From: Vibrio coralliilyticus ATCC BAA-450
GTDB taxonomy: Bacteria > Pseudomonadota > Gammaproteobacteria > Enterobacterales > Vibrionaceae
DNA length: 64,000 nt
Reading direction: 5' to 3'
Assembly: GCF_000176135.1 (NCBI RefSeq)
Contig: NZ_ACZN01000017.1
Location: 1 to 64,000, forward strand
The notes under the pieces are model-generated. The model was not told the origin of the DNA and did no database searches. It saw only the letters and a list, made by a program, of their open reading frames with translations. Numbering within the stretch: the stretch's first letter is position 1; every line of letters starts with the position of its first letter. The position numbers were made by a program, and so were the translations under genes. This document shows positions 26,694 through 38,276 of the stretch, one piece after another.

Positions 26694-26832
26694 GAGACTA
26701 CCTGAGTTAATTGAGCGGTTAGTTTTATTTACTTCTTTTTGAAGAGTAGTTGCTATTTATAGATATATCAATTGATCTGGTCTGGCCAGAAAAATATGGA
26801 TACTAACAATGTTAAAGGTGGGAAATATCAGA

Positions 26833-27438
26833 ATGTTGAAACAATTGGAGCGATATCAAGGTTTAATCTTTGATATGGACGGAACCTTAATAGATACCAT
26901 GCCGTCACACCTAAAAGCATGGGAGATAACGGCCACTGAATTTGGATTTCCTTTTACACAAGAATGGCTTCATAGCTTAGGTGGTATGCCAAGCTATAAA
27001 ATAGCGGCGGAAGTCAATAAGAAGCATGGTTTAGCACTGGACCCTATGGCTGTTTCTGCTTTCAAGATGAAGGCGTTCAGTGAGCTGGAGAATTTTGGAT
27101 TACCTATTGAGTCTACTAACGAAGTTCTCGAGCATTTTTATGGTAAAAAGAAAATCGCGGTAGGAACGGGGAGCCAACGCGAAAGCGCAATGCGGTTACT
27201 GTCAGAAAGCCAAATCCTCGATAAGCTGGATACTGTCGTGACGGCGACAGATGTTAAACACCACAAACCGAATCCAGATACGTTTTTGATTGCAGCTCAA
27301 GAGCTTAACTTATTGCCAAGTGAATGCGTGGTTTTTGAAGATACAGAGCTAGGTAAACAAGCCGCACACGCAGCGAAAATGGACTGCGTCATGGTAGAAA
27401 GCAGTGGGTTGGTTTTCTATCCGTGCCCACAAGAATAA
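26833..27438 (+). CDS. HAD-superfamily sugar phosphatase, YqaB-like
   Basis: 201 residues from ATG 26833 (GGTGGG upstream); an ATG at 26809 has no binding site. HAD motifs: FDMDGTLIDT near 13, GTGSQ near 109, VKHHKPNPDTF near 142 and FEDTELG near 172. The sequence follows E. coli YqaB (fructose-1-phosphate and 6-phosphogluconate phosphatase) along its length, including the beta-phosphoglucomutase-like cap. Exact substrate is inferred. It converges on gsk. Confidence 0.85.
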   Translation: MLKQLERYQGLIFDMDGTLIDTMPSHLKAWEITATEFGFPFTQEWLHSLGGMPSYKIAAEVNKKHGLALDPMAVSAFKMKAFSELENFGLPIESTNEVLEHFYGKKKIAVGTGSQRESAMRLLSESQILDKLDTVVTATDVKHHKPNPDTFLIAAQELNLLPSECVVFEDTELGKQAAHAAKMDCVMVESSGLVFYPCPQE

Positions 27439-30265: not shown

Positions 30266-30913
30266 ATGGGTAAACCTCAAACTCAATGTGTGATATTTGA
30301 TTGCGACGGTACTCTAGTCGATAGCGAACGGTTGTGCTGTCAGGCTTTATGCGATGTCTTTAATCGTTATGATGTCCACCTGTCGTTAGATATGGCGATA
30401 GAGCACTTTGAGGGAGGTAAGCTTGCCGATATTCTTACCGATATGCGAGACCGGCTTGGTCTTTCAGTTTCTCTTGATGAACTTGAGCCAGTTTACCGCG
30501 AAGTGCTCGAGCAACTGTTTGAAGCTCACTTGAAGCCAATGGACGGCGTGTTTGATGTCATTAAATACCTTGAAGCAAGGGGAATCGAGTATTGCGTTGC
30601 GTCTAATGGCCCAAAAAACAAAATAGAAAAAACATTACGAATCACCGGATTACTGCCTTACTTCAAAGGCAAAATTTTCTCAGCATTTGATACCAATAGT
30701 TGGAAACCTGAACCTGATTTAGTGAAGTACAGTGCAATGAATATGGGCTTTACACTTAACGAATGCATCTATGTAGACGATACACCAAAAGGTCTCGAAG
30801 CGGGAGTTCGCGCTGGTGTTAAAACCGTCCATTTAGTTGGTCTTAACGATAAAATACATTCGGAAAAAGTTGTGAGGATTAAAGGTCTGAGAGATCTAGA
30901 AGCTCTAATCTAA
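30266..30913 (+). CDS. HAD-superfamily phosphatase, YieH-like
   Basis: 215 residues with AAGGAAGG upstream. HAD motifs: FDCDGTLVDSERLC near 10, VASNGPKNKI near 112, WKPEPDL near 150 and YVDDTPKGLEAG near 171. The N-x-N-K stretch after SNGP and the WKP motif match E. coli YieH (6-phosphogluconate and related phosphatase). Substrate inferred. It converges on the zinc-ribbon gene with a 3-base gap. Confidence 0.85.
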   Translation: MGKPQTQCVIFDCDGTLVDSERLCCQALCDVFNRYDVHLSLDMAIEHFEGGKLADILTDMRDRLGLSVSLDELEPVYREVLEQLFEAHLKPMDGVFDVIKYLEARGIEYCVASNGPKNKIEKTLRITGLLPYFKGKIFSAFDTNSWKPEPDLVKYSAMNMGFTLNECIYVDDTPKGLEAGVRAGVKTVHLVGLNDKIHSEKVVRIKGLRDLEALI

Positions 30914-31350: not shown

Positions 31351-31374
31351 GCACGCTCCATAATTGGAGCGTGC
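31351..31374 (-). terminator. Hairpin downstream of the PTS-kinase-aldolase operon
   Basis: GCACGCTCCA-TAAT-TGGAGCGTGC: a perfect 10-base-pair stem with a 4-base loop, 17 bases after the eda stop. The T run on the minus side is poor (CATTTCC), so it may be an mRNA 3' protector as much as a terminator. Confidence 0.6.
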
Positions 31375-31391
31375 AAATGAGTATCAATGCT

Positions 31392-32018
31392 CTATTTAAC
31401 TAATTGAACTGCCTCACGTGTAAGTCTGGCGAGCTCATCCCAGTTTTTCTCTTCAACAAGCTTTTTGTCGACCATCCATGTACCACCACAAGCTAAGACC
31501 CTTGGAATCGAAAGATAGTCTTGGATATTGTTAGTATTAATACCACCTGTAGGCATAAGGCTTACATCAGAATACGGAGCAAGCAAAGCTTTCACCATGT
31601 TCACGCCACCTGAAGCTTCCGCTGGGAAAAACTTCAGTGTCGTAAGGCCCATTTCTAGAGCCGCTTCAATGGTACTTGGGTTATTTACACCCGGTATAAT
31701 ATCGATTCCAATTTCCTGGCAAGCCTTTACGGTATTAGGATTAAATCCTGGTGAGACAATAAAAGTTGCACCTGCTTCCTTAGCGGCAATAGCCTGTTCT
31801 CTATTTAATACGGTGCCTGCGCCGATCAGCATCTCGGGTTGAGATTCTCTTAGTAAACGTATTGCTTCAATAGCGGCGTCTGATCGAAACGTAATTTCAG
31901 CTGCTGGTAACCCGTTGTCTGCCAGTACTTTTCCTAGAGGGACAATATCTTTTGCATCTTCAATAGCGATTACTGGAATGACTTTGAGTTTTTTTAATTG
32001 TTCGTTGATAAGTGACAT
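31392..32018 (-). CDS. eda: KDPG/KHG aldolase
   Basis: 208 residues, standard Eda length. The Schiff-base lysine lies in TLKFFPAEASGG near 130, the catalytic glutamate in PAAEITFRSDAA near 38, and the phosphate loop in MPTGGIN near 158. It cleaves 2-keto-3-deoxy-6-phosphogluconate to pyruvate and glyceraldehyde-3-phosphate. Last gene of PTS-kdgK-eda, 12 bases after the kinase gene, so it is committed to this pathway and is probably not the only eda in the genome. Confidence 0.93.
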   Translation of the reverse strand: MSLINEQLKKLKVIPVIAIEDAKDIVPLGKVLADNGLPAAEITFRSDAAIEAIRLLRESQPEMLIGAGTVLNREQAIAAKEAGATFIVSPGFNPNTVKACQEIGIDIIPGVNNPSTIEAALEMGLTTLKFFPAEASGGVNMVKALLAPYSDVSLMPTGGINTNNIQDYLSIPRVLACGGTWMVDKKLVEEKNWDELARLTREAVQLVK

Positions 32019-32030
32019 CGTTTTACCTTA

Positions 32031-32981
32031 TTAAATGAGTGCGAGCTGGGTGTGCTTAGGGTCAATAATAGCTCCCCGATGCTGGATAACAATGCTCGCC
32101 AATTTGTTACCCATTTTACATGCTTGTTCTAATTTTGAACCATTTAAATAAGCCGCTAAGAACGCGCCATTGAATGAGTCGCCTGCTGACGTTGTATCAA
32201 CAACATTCTTAACTGGTGTAGTTGTGATACTCTGGGTTTTCTTACCGTTTTGAGACAAAAGACAGCCTTCGCTCCCAAGTTTTACGACTACGTTTTTAAT
32301 GCCTTGATCTTTTAATCGCATCATTGTTTCTTCAGAGTTTTTGTCGCCCCACAGAGCTTGTTCATCTTCATAAGTAACAATCGCCGTATCGGTAATAGAA
32401 TACATCGCGTTATAAGCTGACATTACTGATTGGTTTTGGTCATTTGGCCAAAGTGCAGGGCGGAAATTACTGTCAAAACATAATTCAACGCCCTTTACTT
32501 TCAACTCCTTGAGTAAGCAGAGTAATTTATGCCTGTCTTGCTCCGGTAGTATCGCAAGTGTTATACCACTGATATATACCATGTCGACATCAACAAGCTG
32601 CGACGCGATAGATTCAAAGTGAGGGTGCTGAATCAGCCAACGCGCCGCAGAGTCATTACGCCAATACATAAATGTACGTTCGCCTTCTTCGTCTAGTTGG
32701 ATCAAGTAAAGGCCGGGTGTTTTGTTTTCACAGGTCAACACATACTCAGTATTAATCCCTTCTTTCTTCCATGCGTCTACCATACCTTGGCTGATGGAAT
32801 CGGTACCTACAGCGGTAACGTAAGATACTTTCGCCGATTCGCCTGATGTAAAAGCTCTCTGAGCGCGATTTAGATAGATAGCTGTGTTAAGCGTATCTCC
32901 ACCATAGGCTTGTTGCATGTTTCCAAATGGTGATCCGTTAAGCTCAATCATACATTCCCCGATAATGGCGATATGTTTCAT
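32031..32981 (-). CDS. kdgK: 2-keto-3-deoxygluconate kinase (PfkB family)
   Basis: 316 residues from ATG 32981 (TGAGGA, 7 bases upstream); the longer frame to 33017 lacks a site. N-terminal IGECMIEL, the gly-rich AYGGDTLNTA near 33 and catalytic DTTSAGDSFNGAF near 265 mark the KdgK subgroup of sugar kinases. Expected reaction: KDG plus ATP to KDPG, the direct substrate of the aldolase next to it. Middle gene of a three-gene operon. Confidence 0.9.
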   Translation of the reverse strand: MKHIAIIGECMIELNGSPFGNMQQAYGGDTLNTAIYLNRAQRAFTSGESAKVSYVTAVGTDSISQGMVDAWKKEGINTEYVLTCENKTPGLYLIQLDEEGERTFMYWRNDSAARWLIQHPHFESIASQLVDVDMVYISGITLAILPEQDRHKLLCLLKELKVKGVELCFDSNFRPALWPNDQNQSVMSAYNAMYSITDTAIVTYEDEQALWGDKNSEETMMRLKDQGIKNVVVKLGSEGCLLSQNGKKTQSITTTPVKNVVDTTSAGDSFNGAFLAAYLNGSKLEQACKMGNKLASIVIQHRGAIIDPKHTQLALI

Positions 32982-33053
32982 GTAGGAGTCCTCATATTGA
33001 GATAAAGAAAGCCGCAAGTGAGGGACAAGCGGCTTGTTTTCAGGAGATAACGC

Positions 33054-34493
33054 TTATTTAGCTTCTATTTTCACGAATGCCATCGTTAACGCAAAAGACA
33101 GAATAAACACGCCACATACACCGAGAATGGCTTGGATGAAGTTCTGTGTTCCGCCAGACAAGTATGCCGGAAGACTGAAAACAGACGACAAGATATAGCT
33201 AGTTAGGTGGGTATCAAGAGTTACTGATATTGCACCAAAGATGCCAGCAGCTAAGCTCGCCATAAACAGGGCCTTAGTATAATTCGTCAATACACCAAAC
33301 AGAGCTGGCTCGGTGATACCAAGAATAGCGGTTACCCCGGAACTAGCTGTAATTGAAGAGTTTTCTTTAGAAACGAACTTACGCTGCTTGTACCACACCG
33401 CAAACGTAGCACCAGCAATAGCAAGGTTACCAAGACACATGATCGGCATGAGCAGGTCTTTACCATAAAGTGCGAAGTTGTTTAAGCTGATTGGCGTCAT
33501 GCTATGGTGGATACCAAATACTATGGTAATTGGACGCGTAATCCCAAAAACAAAGCCAGTTAAAGTCGGTGAAATTTCTAGTAATGAACTCACGATCCAC
33601 CCAGCTCCATTGCTCAACCAAATACCTAGAGGTCCAACAAAAGAGAGTGTGAGTGTTGATGTGATAGCAAACGCTAATAGGGGGGTGATAACAGGCTTAG
33701 CCGCTGATGGAACAATACTGTCAACAAGTGGTGTAACTTTTGAAAGCAACCATACTGCCAAGATCACAGGAACTATCGCTCCGCCATAGTTTAGCAATTC
33801 AATAGGGACAGCCCCTAAAACCGTTAATTCAGCTGGTATGTTTGCTTCTTTTAACGCAGCGGCTTTTTCTATTAGCTTCGGTGACAGCATTGCAGCTGCC
33901 ACAGCAACAGCGATGTATTCGTTAACACGAAACATTTTCGCGGCCGAGAAAGAGACCAAAATAGGTAGAAAGAAGAATACGGCTACAGAAATAGATCGAA
34001 AGAAGAAAACGGTATCGGAGTTTTCTGAGATCACCTCAGTCGCTATAAGGCCTGAAAGTAAACCCATAAGCATACCAGCCCCCGCAATTGCAGGAACAAT
34101 CGGACCAAAGATGCCTGCTACTATACGCATTGCGCCTTGGAAAAGTTTGCCATCTTCTTTAGTAGAACCAGCGCTATTAGAGTCCGAACTAGGTTGGCTT
34201 GTGGGAAGGGCTTTAAACCATTTCTCAACGTCTACGCCAATAATAACCTGAACTTGGCCTTGCTTAATTACTACGCCTTTGACGCCTTGCAGCGACTTCA
34301 GTGTGTTTTCCTTCACTAGAGACTCGTCTTTTAGCTTAAAACGCAGGCGAGTCATACAGTGTGTAGAATCAGTTATGTTGGTTGTTCCACCAAGGGATTC
34401 AATCAGATACTGTACTTTCTCTTTGATACTACTCGTTTTATTAGGGCCAATATTGCTTGGATCTAATGCACCTACAGATTCATCTATCTTCAT
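33054..34493 (-). CDS. PTS transporter EIIBC, glucose/sucrose superfamily
   Basis: 479 residues. A 20-residue N-terminal extension precedes EIIB, whose phosphorylated Cys46 sits in STHCMTRLRF; EIIB ends near 95. EIIC (about 115-475) has some ten hydrophobic segments and a GIHHSMTPI motif near 326, as in sucrose/trehalose/beta-glucoside systems. No EIIA domain or gene is present, so the phosphoryl donor should be the glucose EIIA (Crr). First gene of PTS-kdgK-eda; by context it brings in a sugar acid or sugar-acid precursor. A CRP-like site lies about 80 bases upstream. Confidence 0.9.
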   Translation of the reverse strand: MKIDESVGALDPSNIGPNKTSSIKEKVQYLIESLGGTTNITDSTHCMTRLRFKLKDESLVKENTLKSLQGVKGVVIKQGQVQVIIGVDVEKWFKALPTSQPSSDSNSAGSTKEDGKLFQGAMRIVAGIFGPIVPAIAGAGMLMGLLSGLIATEVISENSDTVFFFRSISVAVFFFLPILVSFSAAKMFRVNEYIAVAVAAAMLSPKLIEKAAALKEANIPAELTVLGAVPIELLNYGGAIVPVILAVWLLSKVTPLVDSIVPSAAKPVITPLLAFAITSTLTLSFVGPLGIWLSNGAGWIVSSLLEISPTLTGFVFGITRPITIVFGIHHSMTPISLNNFALYGKDLLMPIMCLGNLAIAGATFAVWYKQRKFVSKENSSITASSGVTAILGITEPALFGVLTNYTKALFMASLAAGIFGAISVTLDTHLTSYILSSVFSLPAYLSGGTQNFIQAILGVCGVFILSFALTMAFVKIEAK

Positions 34494-34573
34494 ATACGAC
34501 TACCGCTATTAATTAATCTACTTGATTGGGACTCATACTATAGATATTAGTCTGTCTTCCAAATGGCTGAAAC

Positions 34574-34589
34574 TGAGAGTTTTGTCACA
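34574..34589 (-). promoter_or_regulatory. CRP-like site upstream of the PTS operon
   Basis: TGAGA-GTTTTG-TCACA matches the CRP consensus TGTGA-N6-TCACA in 9 of 10 fixed positions, with AAA before and ATT after. It lies 81 bases from the EIIBC start, a sensible distance for catabolite activation. The site is symmetric and might also serve the divergent dehydratase gene. Confidence 0.5.
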
Positions 34590-34628
34590 ATTAAAGTCAA
34601 GTTGAATCAAATTCTAATTATTTTTTCC

Positions 34629-34675
34629 AATTGGTCTGTTTTTCATTGAAAACTATAACAATTAACGAACCAATT
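34629..34675. promoter_or_regulatory. Inverted AATTGGT/ACCAATT pair, candidate GntR operator
   Basis: AATTGGT (34629-34635) and ACCAATT (34669-34675) face each other in the divergent PTS/dehydratase region, each next to a copy of AATTATTTTTT. The nearby UTRA-type GntR regulator would be a natural ligand, but its target is unknown. Confidence 0.35.
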
Positions 34676-34757
34676 ATTTTTTTAATAATATTAGGGCTTG
34701 AAAACGAAAAATTTAAATTGTTATATAAGGAAAATTCTGAGTAAGAGTCGTTTAATC

Positions 34758-35957
34758 GTGAACACAACAATTATCACTGATGTAGAATGCATCATTACAA
34801 AACCAGATAGACATAATTTAATTACCGTTATAGTTCATACTAATAATGGTACAGTAGGTTATGGGTGTGCAACATTTCAGCAACGTCCTTTAGCTGTTAA
34901 GACTATGGTTGATGAATATTTAAAACCATTACTTATAGGTAAAGATGCTAACAATATTGAAGACTTGTGGCAGATGATGATGGTAAATGCATATTGGCGG
35001 AATGGCCCTGTGATTAATAACGCGGTATCAGGAGTTGATATGGCCTTATGGGACATTAAAGCCAAGCAAGCAAAAATGCCACTTCACCAATTGTTCGGTG
35101 GAAAATCACGTGATGCGATTGCGGTGTACACACATGCAACCAGTGACTCTATGGAAGGTTTATACGAGTCGATCGATAACTATTTGAAACAGGGTTATCG
35201 ACACATACGTTGCCAGTTAGGCTTTTATGGCGGTGTTCCTGAGGCATTACATACCACACAAAACCCAACTGTTGGTTCATACTATGATCAAGACCAATAC
35301 GTAGAGAACACTGTCACCATGTTTAAATTACTTCGTGAAAAATATGGAAACCAATTCCATATTCTTCATGATGTGCACGAACGATTATTTCCCAACCAAG
35401 CGGTTCAGTTTGCTAAAGACGTAGAAAAATACAAACCCTATTTTATAGAAGATATCCTTCCACCTAATCAAACCGAATGGCTGGATAATATCCGTAGCCA
35501 AACATCAGTTTCTCTTGGCCTAGGCGAGTTATTTAACAATCCTGAAGAGTGGAAATCTCTAATTATTAATCGTCGGATAGATTTTATTCGCTGCCACGTA
35601 TCTCAAATTGGTGGTATTACTCCAGCGTTGAAACTTGGTCACCTATGTCAGACATTTGGAGTAAGGATTGCGTGGCACTGCCCGCCAGACATGACACCTA
35701 TAGGCGCTGCAGTCAATACGCATCTAAACGTTCATCTACACAATGCTGCTATTCAGGAACATGTCGAATATAAAGAAAATACGCGCAAAGTTTTTCCTGG
35801 TGCGAGTGAACCTAAAAATGGCTACCTTTATGCATCTGAGTTGAGCGGCATAGGCGTTGAAATCGATACAGAAGTTGCTGCCGATTTCCCAGTGACTTAT
35901 AGGCCCCATGAGTGGACGCAGAGCCGTCTACCAGATGGTACTATCCACACACCTTAA
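34758..35957 (+). CDS. Mandelate racemase/enolase superfamily dehydratase (RspA/ManD-like)
   Basis: 399 residues from GTG 34758. The fold matches the D-mannonate dehydratase (RspA) family: N-terminal capping domain with AYWRNGPV near 78, metal ligands in HDVHER near 203, EDILPP near 231 and GELFNN near 256, and [11 protein letters not shown] near 306. Family members dehydrate D-mannonate or D-gluconate to KDG, often slowly. That product is exactly what the divergent kinase and aldolase would use. Start is unclear: there is no ATG in the first 90 bases; TTG 34698 and a non-standard CTG 34737 behind AAGGA are alternatives. Confidence 0.85.
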
Positions 35958-35988
35958 AAAAATAGCCGCTTTAGCGGCTATTTTTTTC
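35957..35988. terminator. Bidirectional terminator overlapping the end of the GntR gene
   Basis: AAAAAAATAGCCGC-TTTA-GCGGCTATTTTTTT. The hairpin includes the last codons and stop of the GntR gene (stop at 35971-35973), so the stem is partly coding. Confidence 0.85.
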
Positions 35989-36684
35989 TCTAAATTCAAT
36001 GTCTTCAGTATTGAAAGGGGTATGGTAAGTACATTGGTAATCGATATCGATAACATTGCTGACAATAAACACTTCACCGGACTTTAAAAAACCGCGATTG
36101 GTAATGTTCATTGCAGCAGTGGATCGTTTACAGCCAAATAGTTTGGCGTCCTCAGCAGAGATGTTTATCGCTCGATAAGTGGTGAGATACTTTTCAATCT
36201 TTAGCCCAAGCTCTATGGCATGCTTTTGTAGAGAATGTTCTACAATCTCATCACTCATTTTGGGGAACATTTTCACAGGTATTTTAGTTTCTTCAATCTG
36301 AGTGACTTTACCATCAATTAACCTTAGCCTTTTTAAATTCCATATATAATCATTGTCATCAAGTAGAAATGCTTGTTTTTCTTGGCTGTCGGTTAATCTT
36401 TTGTTTATCTTTATTTTCTTATAAGAAATTTCATTGAAACGTTTTTCAGTAATAGAGTTATATATTAGCGGGCTGCTGTCCAAGTTTTTGTATATGTAAA
36501 TTCCTGAACCAGATTTTATATATATAATACCAATTGATTGAAGCTTTTCTAAAGCCTTTCTAATGGTAAATCTAGATACGTTATAAGATTCAGATAATTC
36601 TCTTTCAGTAGGTAATTTCTCGGATATTAATTTTTGAGAAATTTTACTAATAATATCTTGAACAACAAATTCATATTTCTTCAT
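35971..36684 (-). CDS. GntR-family regulator, HutC/UTRA type
   Basis: 237 residues. The winged helix is at about 1-66 (LPTERELSESYNVSRFTIRKALE, read as LPTERELSE and SRFTIRKALE near 24-46), then a UTRA ligand-binding domain (about 85-230) ending in YQCTYHTPF. UTRA regulators usually bind a phosphorylated sugar or an acidic metabolite and release DNA. By position it controls the divergent PTS operon and dehydratase gene. Base composition is clearly more AT rich than flanking genes, a sign of transfer. No strong ribosome binding site. Confidence 0.88.
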   Translation of the reverse strand: MKKYEFVVQDIISKISQKLISEKLPTERELSESYNVSRFTIRKALEKLQSIGIIYIKSGSGIYIYKNLDSSPLIYNSITEKRFNEISYKKIKINKRLTDSQEKQAFLLDDNDYIWNLKRLRLIDGKVTQIEETKIPVKMFPKMSDEIVEHSLQKHAIELGLKIEKYLTTYRAINISAEDAKLFGCKRSTAAMNITNRGFLKSGEVFIVSNVIDIDYQCTYHTPFNTEDIEFREKNSR

Positions 36685-36796: not shown

Positions 36797-37252
36797 TTAT
36801 GTTCGATCTGCAAGATAAGCTTCGTAATCTGGGATTTCGATGTCGACTTCGGATTCAATTAAGTCAGACTCGATTAGGAAGTTTGCCGTTGCGCGGTTAG
36901 TGGCGACTGGGATGTTCCATACACTGGCGATACGGAGTAGGGCTTTTACATCAGGGTCATGCGGTACAGCATTGAGTGGATCCCAGAAGAAGATAAGCAT
37001 ATCGATTTTTCCTTCCGAAATCAGAGCGCCAAGTTGTTGGTCACCGCCCATCGGTCCGGAAATCATGCTCTTTATCGCTAGGCCTGTTTCTTTACTCAGC
37101 ATGGAGCCTGTTGTGCCGGTCGCGTACAGAAAATGGCGCTGAAGCTTTTCTTTGTGCTCAGTAACCCAGCGAAGTAGCTCTGGTTTACAGTTGTCATGCG
37201 CAACAAGAGCAACATGTTTGTGTGCAGGCATAGTGCGAGTTGTTTTCTGCAT
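36797..37252 (-). CDS. mgsA: Methylglyoxal synthase
   Basis: 151 residues, E. coli MgsA has 152. HDNCKPE near 19, GTTGSM near 46, [11 protein letters not shown] near 65 with the catalytic Asp, FFWDPL near 88 and [10 protein letters not shown] near 117 are all intact. It turns dihydroxyacetone phosphate into methylglyoxal and phosphate, a bypass when sugar phosphates accumulate. It lies 22 bases downstream of torT on the same strand, so co-transcription is likely, an unexpected pairing. Confidence 0.95.
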
Positions 37253-37274
37253 TCTAGATTGTTCCCTAATATTT

Positions 37275-38276
37275 CTAATTATTTACGTAAAATGTTGGTC
37301 GATACTCTGATGGAGACAAAGAATCCGATATCACCTGAGGTTTTAAGTTTTCAGGTGTCAATGCCTCAATGATTGGAGCTTCACTTTTCTCGTAAGGTTC
37401 ACCTTTCAGATAGCTTACCGCTTGTTTTACAGATAATCGACCTTGTTTAACCATTTTGTCAGTAGGCGCAAATTCTACGCGATTTCTCAGCAGGCCGCGG
37501 TAAACGCCGTGACTGAGGTAAGTTGAAATTAGTCCTATCTGATCCGTTTTTCCTGCTGTCCTTAATTCGCTGATCGCCGCTTCAATCGCTACAGCACTGC
37601 CAACTATATAATCTAGGTCTTCACGCTCGATTGATTGCTGTACAAGGTTTCGCTGAAGCTCTTTGTCATTATCTGCCCAGTAGGTTTCAACAATCTGAAT
37701 ATCACTGTCTTCAATAGCACTGAGAAAGCCACGGATAACAGGCTTAGTTCCACCACTAGAATCCGGACCTGGGAGTAAAACAATATTTTTAGTCCCAGAA
37801 CCTCGGGGGTGTTTATCCTTCAAATACTGCCCCGTGTAATAACCCATCCAATACCAATCGACGCCAACTTCGCCTTTGAGCTGTTCTCTTGAATGGCTAC
37901 CCAAAATCAGTTCATTAACACTCGCAAAAACAGGAATATCAACTGCGAATTGGCGCAAATTGTTCATGTATAGATCAGGGGCGACTGTGCCCAAGATAAT
38001 GGCGTCCGCTTTCCATCGCTGGCAGTTCTGAAGTTGTTCTTTTTGTTTAATCTGATTTGGGTATCCGCCGGCTTCAAACACTTTTAAATCAACCCCTAGC
38101 TTTTTAGCCTCGTCTACCATGCCATAGTTAACAGAAAGCCAATAAGAGTCTTTAAGGTGGGGGTAAAGCGCGCACAGTCTTAGAGGTGCTTCAGCGGCAG
38201 ACAAAGAAGTCGGTAAGAAGGAGTATACCGCAATGGCCATTACAAACAGTCGTTTTAGGGAGAAAGCTGGAAGCAT
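37275..38276 (-). CDS. torT: TMAO-sensing periplasmic binding protein TorT
   Basis: 333 residues. Signal peptide of about 27 (cleavage after LSA), then a periplasmic-binding-protein fold of the LacI/ribose type. [19 protein letters not shown] near 35, [14 protein letters not shown] near 140 and [10 protein letters not shown] near 165 match TorT. It binds trimethylamine N-oxide and presents it to TorS. Divergent from torS across 80 bases. It may be co-transcribed with mgsA. Confidence 0.9.

What the first reader, a model, noticed from the sequence alone, without database searches (positions are those of the whole stretch)
31351..36684. AT-rich sugar-acid island whose parts do not make an obvious textbook pathway
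A PTS EIIBC, KDG kinase, KDPG aldolase, RspA/ManD-like dehydratase and UTRA GntR regulator sit together, with visibly higher AT content in the regulator and promoter region than in flanking genes. If the PTS phosphorylates a hexonate on entry, dehydration would give KDPG directly and the kinase would be unneeded; if the dehydratase works on a free hexonate, the PTS product must first be dephosphorylated or opened. No hydrolase, phosphatase or oxidoreductase is inside the unit. The true substrate may be an unusual aldonate or aldonate derivative, or the EIIBC may carry it differently from its sucrose-type relatives.
Basis: partly seen in the sequence, partly recalled or inferred. Interest (0 to 1): 0.55.

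Follow-up and report, generated by a model that had tools for sequence, protein, structure and literature searches.

The report
PTS-coupled sugar-acid dehydratase cassette
A sugar-importing phosphotransferase permease, an enzyme of the mannonate-dehydratase family and a repressor form a travelling three-gene unit shared by Vibrio, enterobacteria and Firmicutes, and two central-metabolism genes added in some lineages suggest it turns an unknown imported sugar acid into 2-keto-3-deoxygluconate.

Summary
The five genes are as described, but the unit's core is three: EIIBC, a ManD/RspA-type dehydratase and a UTRA-GntR regulator. Of 156 distinct ManD-family loci, 103 of 104 at or above 60.8% identity to the window enzyme have an EII next door, against 0 of 52 below; the regulator is beside 100 of those 103. 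The layout and an AATTGG operator pair, most often 40 bp apart, recur in Vibrio, enterobacteria and Firmicutes. Kinase and aldolase are an optional add-on: both lie nearby in 27 of 103 loci, and different pairs, each resembling the end of a KDG-forming operon, were added in Vibrio and in Enterococcus. The linked kinase is under purifying selection (dN/dS about 0.1), so free KDG is probably a real intermediate. My preferred answer is that the PTS phosphate sits on a partner sugar, as in streptococcal hyaluronan uptake (PMC6837340); direct dehydration of a 6-phosphohexonate to KDPG is the main rival. The substrate is unknown. The EIIBC is a separate subfamily, not a sucrose or trehalose permease.

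The parts
31351..31375 (.). GC-rich hairpin (GCACGCTCC / GGAGCGTGC) just after eda, likely end of the operon
   Evidence: read directly from the sequence; not tested for function
31392..32018 (-). KDPG/KHG aldolase (eda), third gene of the EIIBC-kinase-aldolase operon; optional add-on
   Evidence: NF004325 307.6 bits, cut-off 241; PF01081; close non-island kin (75-86%) lie at the ends of hexuronate operons
32031..32981 (-). [quoted passage not shown] optional add-on
   Evidence: NF052444 377.4 bits, just under cut-off 400; median dN/dS 0.118 among triad-linked Vibrionaceae copies, 14 pairs
33054..34493 (-). PTS EIIBC, dedicated subfamily, no EIIA domain; core gene
   Evidence: triad EIIs on one side of a 99/97 branch in a 50-row tree; 48 plasmid records with this EIIBC and 48 with the dehydratase at 60% or more
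34494..34757 (.). divergent promoter region of EIIBC and the dehydratase, 27.3% GC
34629..34638 (+). operator-like site AATTGGTCTG
   Evidence: pattern found in 88 of 101 EIIBC-dehydratase intergenic regions, 1.8 expected in shuffles; pattern derived from the same data
34666..34675 (-). second, inverted operator-like site (AATTGGTTCG on the minus strand); its ACCAA core begins 40 bp after the start of the first site
   Evidence: spacing of 40 bp in 59 and 41 bp in 8 of the 84 plus-strand sites found in the 101 regions
34758..35957 (+). ManD/RspA-type enolase-superfamily dehydratase; core gene
   Evidence: NF043051 376.6 bits, below cut-off 550; closest solved structures 3R25, 3SBF, 4GGH, 3DFH; metal-site and catalytic columns invariant in 103 of 103 PTS-linked sequences
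35960..35983 (.). perfect 10-bp hairpin AAATAGCCGC/GCGGCTATTT between the convergent ends of the dehydratase and GntR genes, likely two-way terminator
   Evidence: read directly from the sequence
35971..36684 (-). GntR-UTRA regulator, 31.9% GC; core gene
   Evidence: PF00392 and PF07702 above cut-off; beside 100 of 103 PTS-linked dehydratases and 0 of 53 others

Best explanation
This is a horizontally moving catabolic cassette for an unidentified compound that contains a sugar acid. Inducer relieves the GntR repressor from the paired operators between the divergent EIIBC and dehydratase genes (inferred). EIIBC, which has no EIIA of its own and so probably uses the cell's general EIIA-Glc, imports the compound and phosphorylates it, most likely at C6 of a glycosyl unit as its sucrose and beta-glucoside relatives do (inferred from family). 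The ManD-type enzyme then removes the C2 proton of the aldonate part and eliminates the group on C3. The acid part becomes free 2-keto-3-deoxygluconate (KDG), while the phosphate stays on the partner sugar. [quoted passage not shown] in hosts without the add-on, kinase and aldolase genes elsewhere in the genome would do so. Shown: the conserved triad, recurring operator-like sites, intact catalytic residues, a distinct EIIBC subfamily, repeated addition of a KDG-kinase-type gene and an aldolase, and selection that keeps the kinase. Inferred: a composite substrate, the site of phosphorylation, and whether the dehydratase itself releases the phospho-sugar or a general phospho-glycosidase does.
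For: EII adjacency switches sharply with the dehydratase clade: 103 of 104 distinct loci at 60.8% identity or more, 0 of 52 below; a recount on raw DNA gave 29 of 29 for L071-L099 and 0 of 51 for L100-L150. Lower relatives opened sit with ABC-transporter-like genes (L100) or with an MFS transporter and idnD (L242). In 72,556 plasmid records this EIIBC (E up to 1e-60) occurs in 48 and the dehydratase at 60% or more in 48, in the same genera. No further enzyme recurs across lineages; recurring neighbours are lineage-limited. The Vibrio KdgK-Eda pair resembles the end of a fructuronate-reductase/glucuronate-isomerase operon, which makes free KDG; the Enterococcus pair resembles an Eda-kinase pair beside KduI. 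Kinase median dN/dS is 0.118 (14 Vibrionaceae pairs) and 0.101 (5 Enterococcus pairs). A KdgK (E up to 1e-50) is in 54 of 54 Vibrionaceae genomes with the dehydratase and 190 of 242 others. Residues including Arg18, Tyr381, Arg382 and His384 are fixed or nearly so in PTS-linked enzymes and rare elsewhere, as expected if the substrate changed with the PTS. Precedent: a streptococcal PTS, KdgK and KdgA cluster for a uronate-amino-sugar disaccharide (PMC6837340).
Against: 71 of 103 PTS-linked loci have neither kinase nor aldolase within 7.5 kb, and 3 Enterococcus-family loci keep the aldolase without a kinase, which also fits direct formation of KDPG. One of those genomes (G309) gave no kinase of the Enterococcus type and none beside its other three aldolase genes; another kinase type was not excluded. 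Both kinases score below the curated KDG-kinase cut-offs, the Enterococcus one clearly, so its substrate is less certain. The linked kinase evolves about twice as fast as the aldolase. Kinase and aldolase were neighbours before capture, so the kinase may have come along. No natural 3-O-glycosyl hexonate with this distribution is known to me. The KdgK association is not corrected for phylogeny. I could not measure whether the clade-specific residues reach the active site.
Confidence: 0.4

Rival explanations
1. Direct route: the EIIBC imports a monomeric hexonate (or its lactone) as the 6-phosphate, and the dehydratase acts on that phosphate ester to give KDPG, which Eda cleaves. The kinase is a passenger, or serves KDG from elsewhere.
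For: Shortest pathway. PF01081 aldolases are in 56 of the 56 triad genomes chosen for the test; no matched set without the triad was run, and 8 of 14 control genomes also have one. Three Enterococcus-family loci keep the aldolase but not the kinase. PTS-clade-specific basic residues Arg18, Arg382 and His384 could bind phosphate. A kinase-less locus in genome G309 with a sorbose-type PTS IIB, a UxuA-family gene and an aldolase shows that such a layout exists (L208).
Against: The kinase is under purifying selection in both lineages that carry it, and every Vibrionaceae genome with the dehydratase has a KdgK. The gene losses seen take the operon-distal end in each lineage (kinase stubs with the aldolase gone in Vibrio L045 and L059; kinase stub in Enterococcus L173), so they do not single out the kinase. 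Sucrose- and beta-glucoside-type EIIs are not known to me to carry linear hexonates.
Confidence: 0.28
2. The imported phosphohexonate is first dephosphorylated by a phosphatase encoded elsewhere or next door, then dehydrated as a free acid to KDG, which KdgK phosphorylates again.
For: A HAD gene resembling 6-phosphogluconate phosphatase lies next to the unit here (30266-30913). It explains the kinase. ManD-family enzymes are known for free acids (recalled).
Against: A homologue of the HAD gene lies in 1 of 40 Vibrionaceae stretches and in none of the 35 wider loci shown. The route would spend phosphate twice. PTS-linked enzymes carry clade-specific residues rare in the other relatives.
Confidence: 0.1
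3. The dehydratase dehydrates the acid end of a 4- or 6-linked phospho-aldobionate, and a general 6-phospho-glycosidase of the host then releases KDG and a sugar phosphate.
For: Such aldonates (cellobionate, maltobionate, gentiobionate) are common (recalled). Some Enterococcus-family stretches have further EII genes near the triad (L093, L168, L169, L176). Kinase and aldolase are explained.
Against: No glycosidase was seen to recur in the triad loci; not every neighbour was put through a family search.
Confidence: 0.13
4. The dehydratase is a poorly active or regulatory member, and the EIIBC carries an ordinary sugar.
For: From recall only, several ManD-subgroup members of this kind showed no activity on the acids tested, and RspA was named for starvation sensing.
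Against: Metal-site and catalytic columns are invariant in 103 of 103. Dehydratase median dN/dS is 0.011 in Vibrionaceae, the lowest of the five genes, and 0.025 in Enterococcus, third lowest. No enzyme for an ordinary sugar phosphate was seen to travel with the EIIBC.
Confidence: 0.08

Closest known systems
D-mannonate/D-gluconate dehydratases of the ManD subgroup, enolase superfamily (PDB 3OW1, 2QJM, 3TW9, 4IHC, 3T6C)
   Same: Family and the columns for metal and catalysis: Asp205, Glu231, Glu257, Arg151, Tyr157, His207, His307, Glu334 (mapping to published residue roles is recalled)
   Different: About 36-40% identity to Vibrio ManD-type genes and 43-51% to the gluconate-type group (group names recalled); below the ManD equivalog cut-off; clade-specific Arg18, Phe156, Tyr196, His326, His328, Ala330, Tyr381, Arg382, His384; partner is a PTS
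Solved structures without a functional name: 3R25, 3SBF, 3DFH, 4GGH/4GIR/4GIS, 3S47, 3GY1, 3TJI, 4HNL
   Same: Same clade by score (E 1e-186 or better); YRPHEW motif seen in 3R25, 3SBF, 4GGH and 3S47
   Different: PDB molecule names give no substrate; this work adds the PTS, regulator and KDG-cap context
Streptococcal hyaluronan cluster (PTS, UGL, DhuI, DhuD, KdgK, KdgA; PMC6837340)
   Same: PTS import of an acid-containing disaccharide, C6 phosphorylation, and a KDG kinase plus KDPG aldolase for the acid half
   Different: EIIA-EIID PTS, a glucuronyl hydrolase and isomerase and reductase steps; no enolase-superfamily enzyme in the scheme read
MurP-MurQ (MurNAc PTS plus etherase)
   Same: A glucose-superfamily EIIBC paired with an elimination enzyme acting on the phosphorylated import (mechanism recalled; the neighbouring genes seen)
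   Different: Different EII branch and unrelated lyase family (recalled)
E. coli plasmid idonate-like cluster with an RspA-like gene (PMC3251573, matched passages seen; L242)
   Same: A ManD relative at about 44% identity in a sugar-acid cluster
   Different: MFS transporter, idnD and SDR; no PTS, kinase or aldolase gene in the stretch

Membership tests
D-mannonate dehydratase (ManD) | Score above the curated equivalog cut-off NF043051 | tested here: not met
   376.6 bits against 550
D-mannonate dehydratase (ManD) | Metal ligands and catalytic Arg/Tyr/His columns present | tested here: met
   Invariant in 103 of 103 PTS-linked sequences and in the 6 Vibrio ManD-type sequences aligned; roles recalled
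D-mannonate dehydratase (ManD) | Dehydrates D-mannonate to KDG | not testable with these tools
   needs enzyme assay
KDG kinase (KdgK), window gene | Score above NF052444 cut-off | tested here: not met
   377.4 against 400 bits, best hit by far; a near miss
KDG kinase (KdgK), window gene | Closest kin lie in KDG pathways | tested here: met
   Five kin at 60-63% lie next to glucuronate isomerase and fructuronate reductase genes, with Eda next in 4 of 5 (isomerase and reductase of L232 above cut-off)
KDG kinase, Enterococcus add-on gene | Score above a KDG-kinase cut-off | tested here: not met
   L092 kinase: 227 against 440 (NF041332) and 108.8 against 400 (NF040938); best hit is the kinase part of an aldolase-kinase fusion model
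KDPG aldolase (Eda) | NF004325 and TIGR01182 cut-offs | tested here: met
   307.6 against 241 and 278.1 against 156.05
Sucrose or trehalose EIIBC | TIGR01996 or TIGR01992 cut-off | tested here: not met
   303.2 against 559.3; 231.2 against 591.95
Beta-glucoside EIIABC | TIGR01995 cut-off | tested here: inconclusive
   353.4 against 614.7, but the model includes an EIIA that this protein lacks; apart from BglF
Glucose-superfamily PTS EIIBC | PTS_EIIB and PTS_EIIC domains | tested here: met
   PF00367 50.5 and PF02378 106.5 bits, above cut-offs
GntR/UTRA regulator | GntR and UTRA domains | tested here: met
   54.6 and 68 bits, above cut-offs; effector not testable
PTS plus KDG-cap disaccharide pathways (hyaluronan type) | Enzyme that splits the acid from the phospho-sugar | tested here: inconclusive
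   No hydrolase seen to recur; whether the dehydratase does it is open

The most novel reading that the evidence does not exclude
The PTS-linked ManD-type enzyme is a phospho-aldobionate lyase: it removes the C2 proton of a 3-O-glycosylated hexonate and expels the 6-phospho-sugar itself, giving KDG plus a sugar 6-phosphate in one step, so that neither glycosidase nor phosphatase is needed. That would be an elimination route for splitting glycosidic bonds in the enolase superfamily.
Probability: 0.15. Interest if true: 0.82.

Novelty: new variant of a known kind. Interest (0 to 1): 0.5.

Why it matters
A group of enolase-superfamily enzymes with eight distinct solved chain sequences and, to my knowledge, no assigned substrate turns out to be tied, in two phyla and on plasmids, to one dedicated PTS permease and one regulator. 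That narrows the search to PTS-transportable, acid-containing compounds, offers an operator to follow, and makes the substrate question directly testable. If the enzyme splits a glycosidic bond by elimination, it would be a new reaction for the superfamily as far as I know.

Tried and rejected
Neighbouring HAD phosphatase as a pathway step: not counted as part of the unit, since a homologue lies in 1 of 40 Vibrionaceae stretches.

Kinase-only loci as proof that the kinase matters more than the aldolase: rejected. The two Vibrio cases first labelled kinase-only (L045, L059) are N-terminal kinase stubs with the aldolase gone, and the Enterococcus stub L173 is the mirror case with the reverse gene order.

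Hence no distance from Arg382 or His384 to the active site.

Insertion site: in THAF190c and V. campbellii the two flanking regions lie hundreds of kilobases apart, so no empty site could be compared.

Literature: searches listed no paper whose title or opening abstract links this dehydratase clade with a PTS; only four papers were opened, none in full. The main ManD paper is not held; what I say of inactive members is recalled.

Rows dropped before counts: L038 and L039 (broken or partial dehydratase) and seven duplicate loci before the 156; five distant loci (L122, L128, L135, L145, L146) were missed there by my ORF caller and were checked on raw DNA (no EII nearby). In the operator count, regions outside 60-600 bp and duplicates were dropped, leaving 101. 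In dN/dS, only pairs with dS 0.15-2.0 were kept.

Confidence in the best explanation was lowered from 0.42 to 0.40, the direct rival raised from 0.27 to 0.28 and the novel case lowered from 0.16 to 0.15, because the Enterococcus kinase falls below the KDG-kinase cut-offs.

Full report
WHAT IS THERE. The unit lies between a HAD gene (30266-30913) and mgsA/torT (36797-38276). On the minus strand run EIIBC (33054-34493), a KDG-kinase homologue (32031-32981) and a KDPG aldolase (31392-32018). The dehydratase (34758-35957) is divergent from EIIBC, and the GntR-UTRA gene (35971-36684) converges on it. The GC claim holds for the regulator, the dehydratase and their promoter, not for the other three genes. 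The window comes from a Vibrio: three named records, Vibrio sp. THAF64, THAF191c and THAF191d, encode a dehydratase 99.5% identical.

THE CORE IS THREE GENES. Of 296 Vibrionaceae genomes, 54 carry a dehydratase of this clade (81% identity or more, counted by me from the list; partial in G140 and broken in G287). In the 33 of these stretches that I fetched at length, GntR is present in 33, EIIBC in 32, and kinase plus aldolase in 16. A scan of named genomes brought 80 loci, the best of at least 579: the 29 closest (L071-L099) have an EII within 4 kb of the dehydratase in 29 and the GntR in 28; the other 51 (L100-L150) have neither in any. The 29 include Vibrio, Pectobacterium, Buttiauxella, Kluyvera, Lelliottia, Kosakonia, Izhakiella, Citrobacter, Clostridium, Mediterraneibacter, Oribacterium, Enterococcus, lactobacilli, Shouchella, Bacillus and a Paenibacillaceae bacterium. 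At E up to 1e-150 the dehydratase is in 27 of 105 genomes of the Enterococcus gallinarum family, 65 of 343 of the Buttiauxella family, 3 of 301 of the Loigolactobacillus family and 3 of 392 of the Mediterraneibacter order, one of which (57%) is the L100 locus without a PTS. Partners were checked in the fetched stretches only: EII and GntR in 20 of 20 for L188-L207. After removing duplicates and two broken or partial genes, 156 distinct loci remain: 103 of 104 at 60.8% identity or more have the EII, 0 of 52 below; GntR 100 of 103 against 0 of 53. The exception at 61.5%, L100, lies beside genes that look like an ABC sugar transporter (by eye).

The unit moves. Flanking genes differ among lineages. 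It is on Cronobacter, Rahnella and Ewingella plasmids and an Enterococcus gallinarum plasmid; three stretches were opened, two with the triad (L240, L241) and one, an E. coli plasmid with a 44% relative, without a PTS. In the plasmid collection the EIIBC type and the dehydratase at 60% or more each occur in 48 records of the same genera; I did not compare every accession. For the Enterococcus EII the nearest outside rows among the 60 listed of 570 are at 37.4% or less and are mostly annotated as beta-glucoside or sucrose permeases.

Neighbours other than the five genes recur only within lineages (up to 8 Vibrionaceae stretches, up to 7 enterobacterial ones outside the ABC and SDR superfamilies) and look like ordinary flanking synteny.

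THE PERMEASE. EIIBC has EIIB and EIIC domains and no EIIA; the E. gallinarum version has an EIIA as well. It scores below the cut-offs for sucrose, trehalose and MurNAc permeases. In a 50-row tree the 38 triad EIIs sampled lie on one side of a branch with 99/97 support, apart from BglF, TreB, MurP and AscF. Only 12 outside rows were used and nine have long branches, so one origin is not excluded rather than proven.

THE DEHYDRATASE. Its closest solved structures (3R25, 3SBF, 3DFH, 4GGH) have no functional name in the PDB list. Metal and catalytic columns are invariant in 103 of 103 PTS-linked members (roles recalled). Residues present in at least 95% of the PTS-linked clade and in at most 8% of the 53 others are Arg18, Leu154, Phe156, Tyr196, His326, Leu327, His328, Ala330, Tyr381, Arg382 and His384. 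Tyr381, Arg382 and His384 are present in 103 of 103. The six near relatives without a PTS (about 60% identical) have other residues at most of these places. This fits a change of substrate together with the PTS; proximity to the active site was not measured.

THE REGULATION. A site AATTGG[AT][ACT][CT]G occurs in 88 of 101 EIIBC-dehydratase intergenic regions, against 1.8 expected in shuffles: 22 of 34 Vibrio-type, 31 of 31 enterobacterial (one Paenibacillaceae locus included) and 35 of 36 Firmicutes. Of 84 plus-strand sites, 72 have a CCAA/CCAG site within 70 bp, 59 of them at 40 bp (16 Vibrio-type, 25 enterobacterial, 18 Firmicutes) and 8 at 41 bp. The pattern was chosen from the same data, so the contrast with shuffles is optimistic; the shared spacing was not part of the choice. 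That the GntR binds there is inferred.

THE ADD-ON. Kinase and aldolase both lie within 7.5 kb in 27 of 103 PTS-linked loci and in 1 of 53 others; aldolase alone in 3 of 103; a kinase-family gene alone in 2 of 103 (L094, L190) and 1 of 53. In Vibrionaceae, five close kin of the kinase lie next to genes labelled UxaC and UxuB (glucuronate isomerase and fructuronate reductase by NCBIfam in L232), with Eda next in four. In Enterococcus a different pair in the reverse order is found; its kin in L220 and L223 lie beside KduI and an SDR gene. L089, a lactobacillus, has a PfkB kinase and a PF01081 aldolase next to its GntR. Loigolactobacillus L094 has KduI, KduD and a PfkB kinase next door, and E. 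innesii L090 a glucuronate isomerase and UxuA, on the far side of the triad. Most of these converge on KDG. The Vibrio kinase narrowly misses the KdgK cut-off; the Enterococcus one falls well below the KDG-kinase cut-offs. Median dN/dS is 0.118 (kinase) and 0.049 (aldolase) in Vibrionaceae and 0.101 and 0.049 in Enterococcus: the kinase evolves about twice as fast as the aldolase but is kept. KdgK (E up to 1e-50) occurs in 54 of 54 Vibrionaceae genomes with the dehydratase and 190 of 242 others (Fisher p 1.4e-5, not corrected for kinship). A PF01081 aldolase is in 56 of 56 triad genomes chosen; no matched control was run. With the Enterococcus kinase as query, 36 of 38 Firmicutes triad genomes have a match; G306 has another kinase type beside an aldolase, and G309 remains open.

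HOW IT PROBABLY WORKS. Separate additions of a KDG-kinase-type gene that stays under selection suggest that unphosphorylated KDG is made. A PTS product carries phosphate. Both hold if the phosphate is on another part of the molecule. This is the logic of streptococcal hyaluronan disaccharide uptake, where PTS, KdgK and KdgA genes share a cluster (PMC6837340; abstract, outline and matched passages seen). Here no hydrolase was seen to recur, which leaves either a general phospho-glycosidase or the dehydratase itself. Elimination at C3 of a 3-O-glycosyl hexonate would release KDG and the sugar phosphate together; this is inference and the boldest reading. The direct 6-phosphohexonate-to-KDPG route is simpler and remains a serious rival, helped by the aldolase-only Enterococcus loci and by the 71 of 103 loci without any add-on.

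LIMITS. No substrate, activity or expression was tested. Phylogenetic correction is missing for the presence counts. Literature statements cover only the held open-access library; the main ManD paper was not available, and what I say of inactive members is recalled.

Noticed in passing
window 30266-30913: HAD phosphatase resembling 6-phosphogluconate phosphatase, just outside the unit; another gene that looks like a HAD hydrolase at 26809-27438 (by eye).
   Followed up: partly
L224:6582-8174 (own genome C4, about 921.6-923.2 kb): Second, divergent Eda and KdgK pair of the same genome, in a neighbourhood that looks by eye like D-amino-acid metabolism.
   Followed up: partly
L208:3239-6838: In genome G309 of the Enterococcus family, a sorbose-type PTS IIB, a UxuA-family gene and a KDPG-aldolase homologue without a kinase: possibly another PTS sugar-acid route that makes KDPG directly.
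   Followed up: partly
L241 (Cronobacter sakazakii pH322_2) and other plasmid records: Dehydratase and EIIBC hits in 30 Cronobacter plasmid records; the one opened is an IncFIB plasmid with the full triad. One listed Cronobacter record calls the dehydratase starvation-sensing protein RspA.
   Followed up: partly
L204: A genome reached through the Buttiauxella-family search (G1387) carries a Vibrio-type triad (dehydratase 82%, EIIBC 75%), suggesting transfer between families.
   Followed up: no
L038, L039: Two Vibrio genomes with a broken or partial dehydratase gene of this clade, so the cassette seems to be decaying there.
   Followed up: no
L231-L235: Vibrio-family hexuronate loci whose kinase-aldolase end resembles the add-on; L231 also has a GH31 glycosidase and a TRAP transporter gene.
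   Followed up: partly
window 56563 (minus strand): A single match to the operator pattern away from the unit, without an inverted partner match nearby; may be chance.
   Followed up: no
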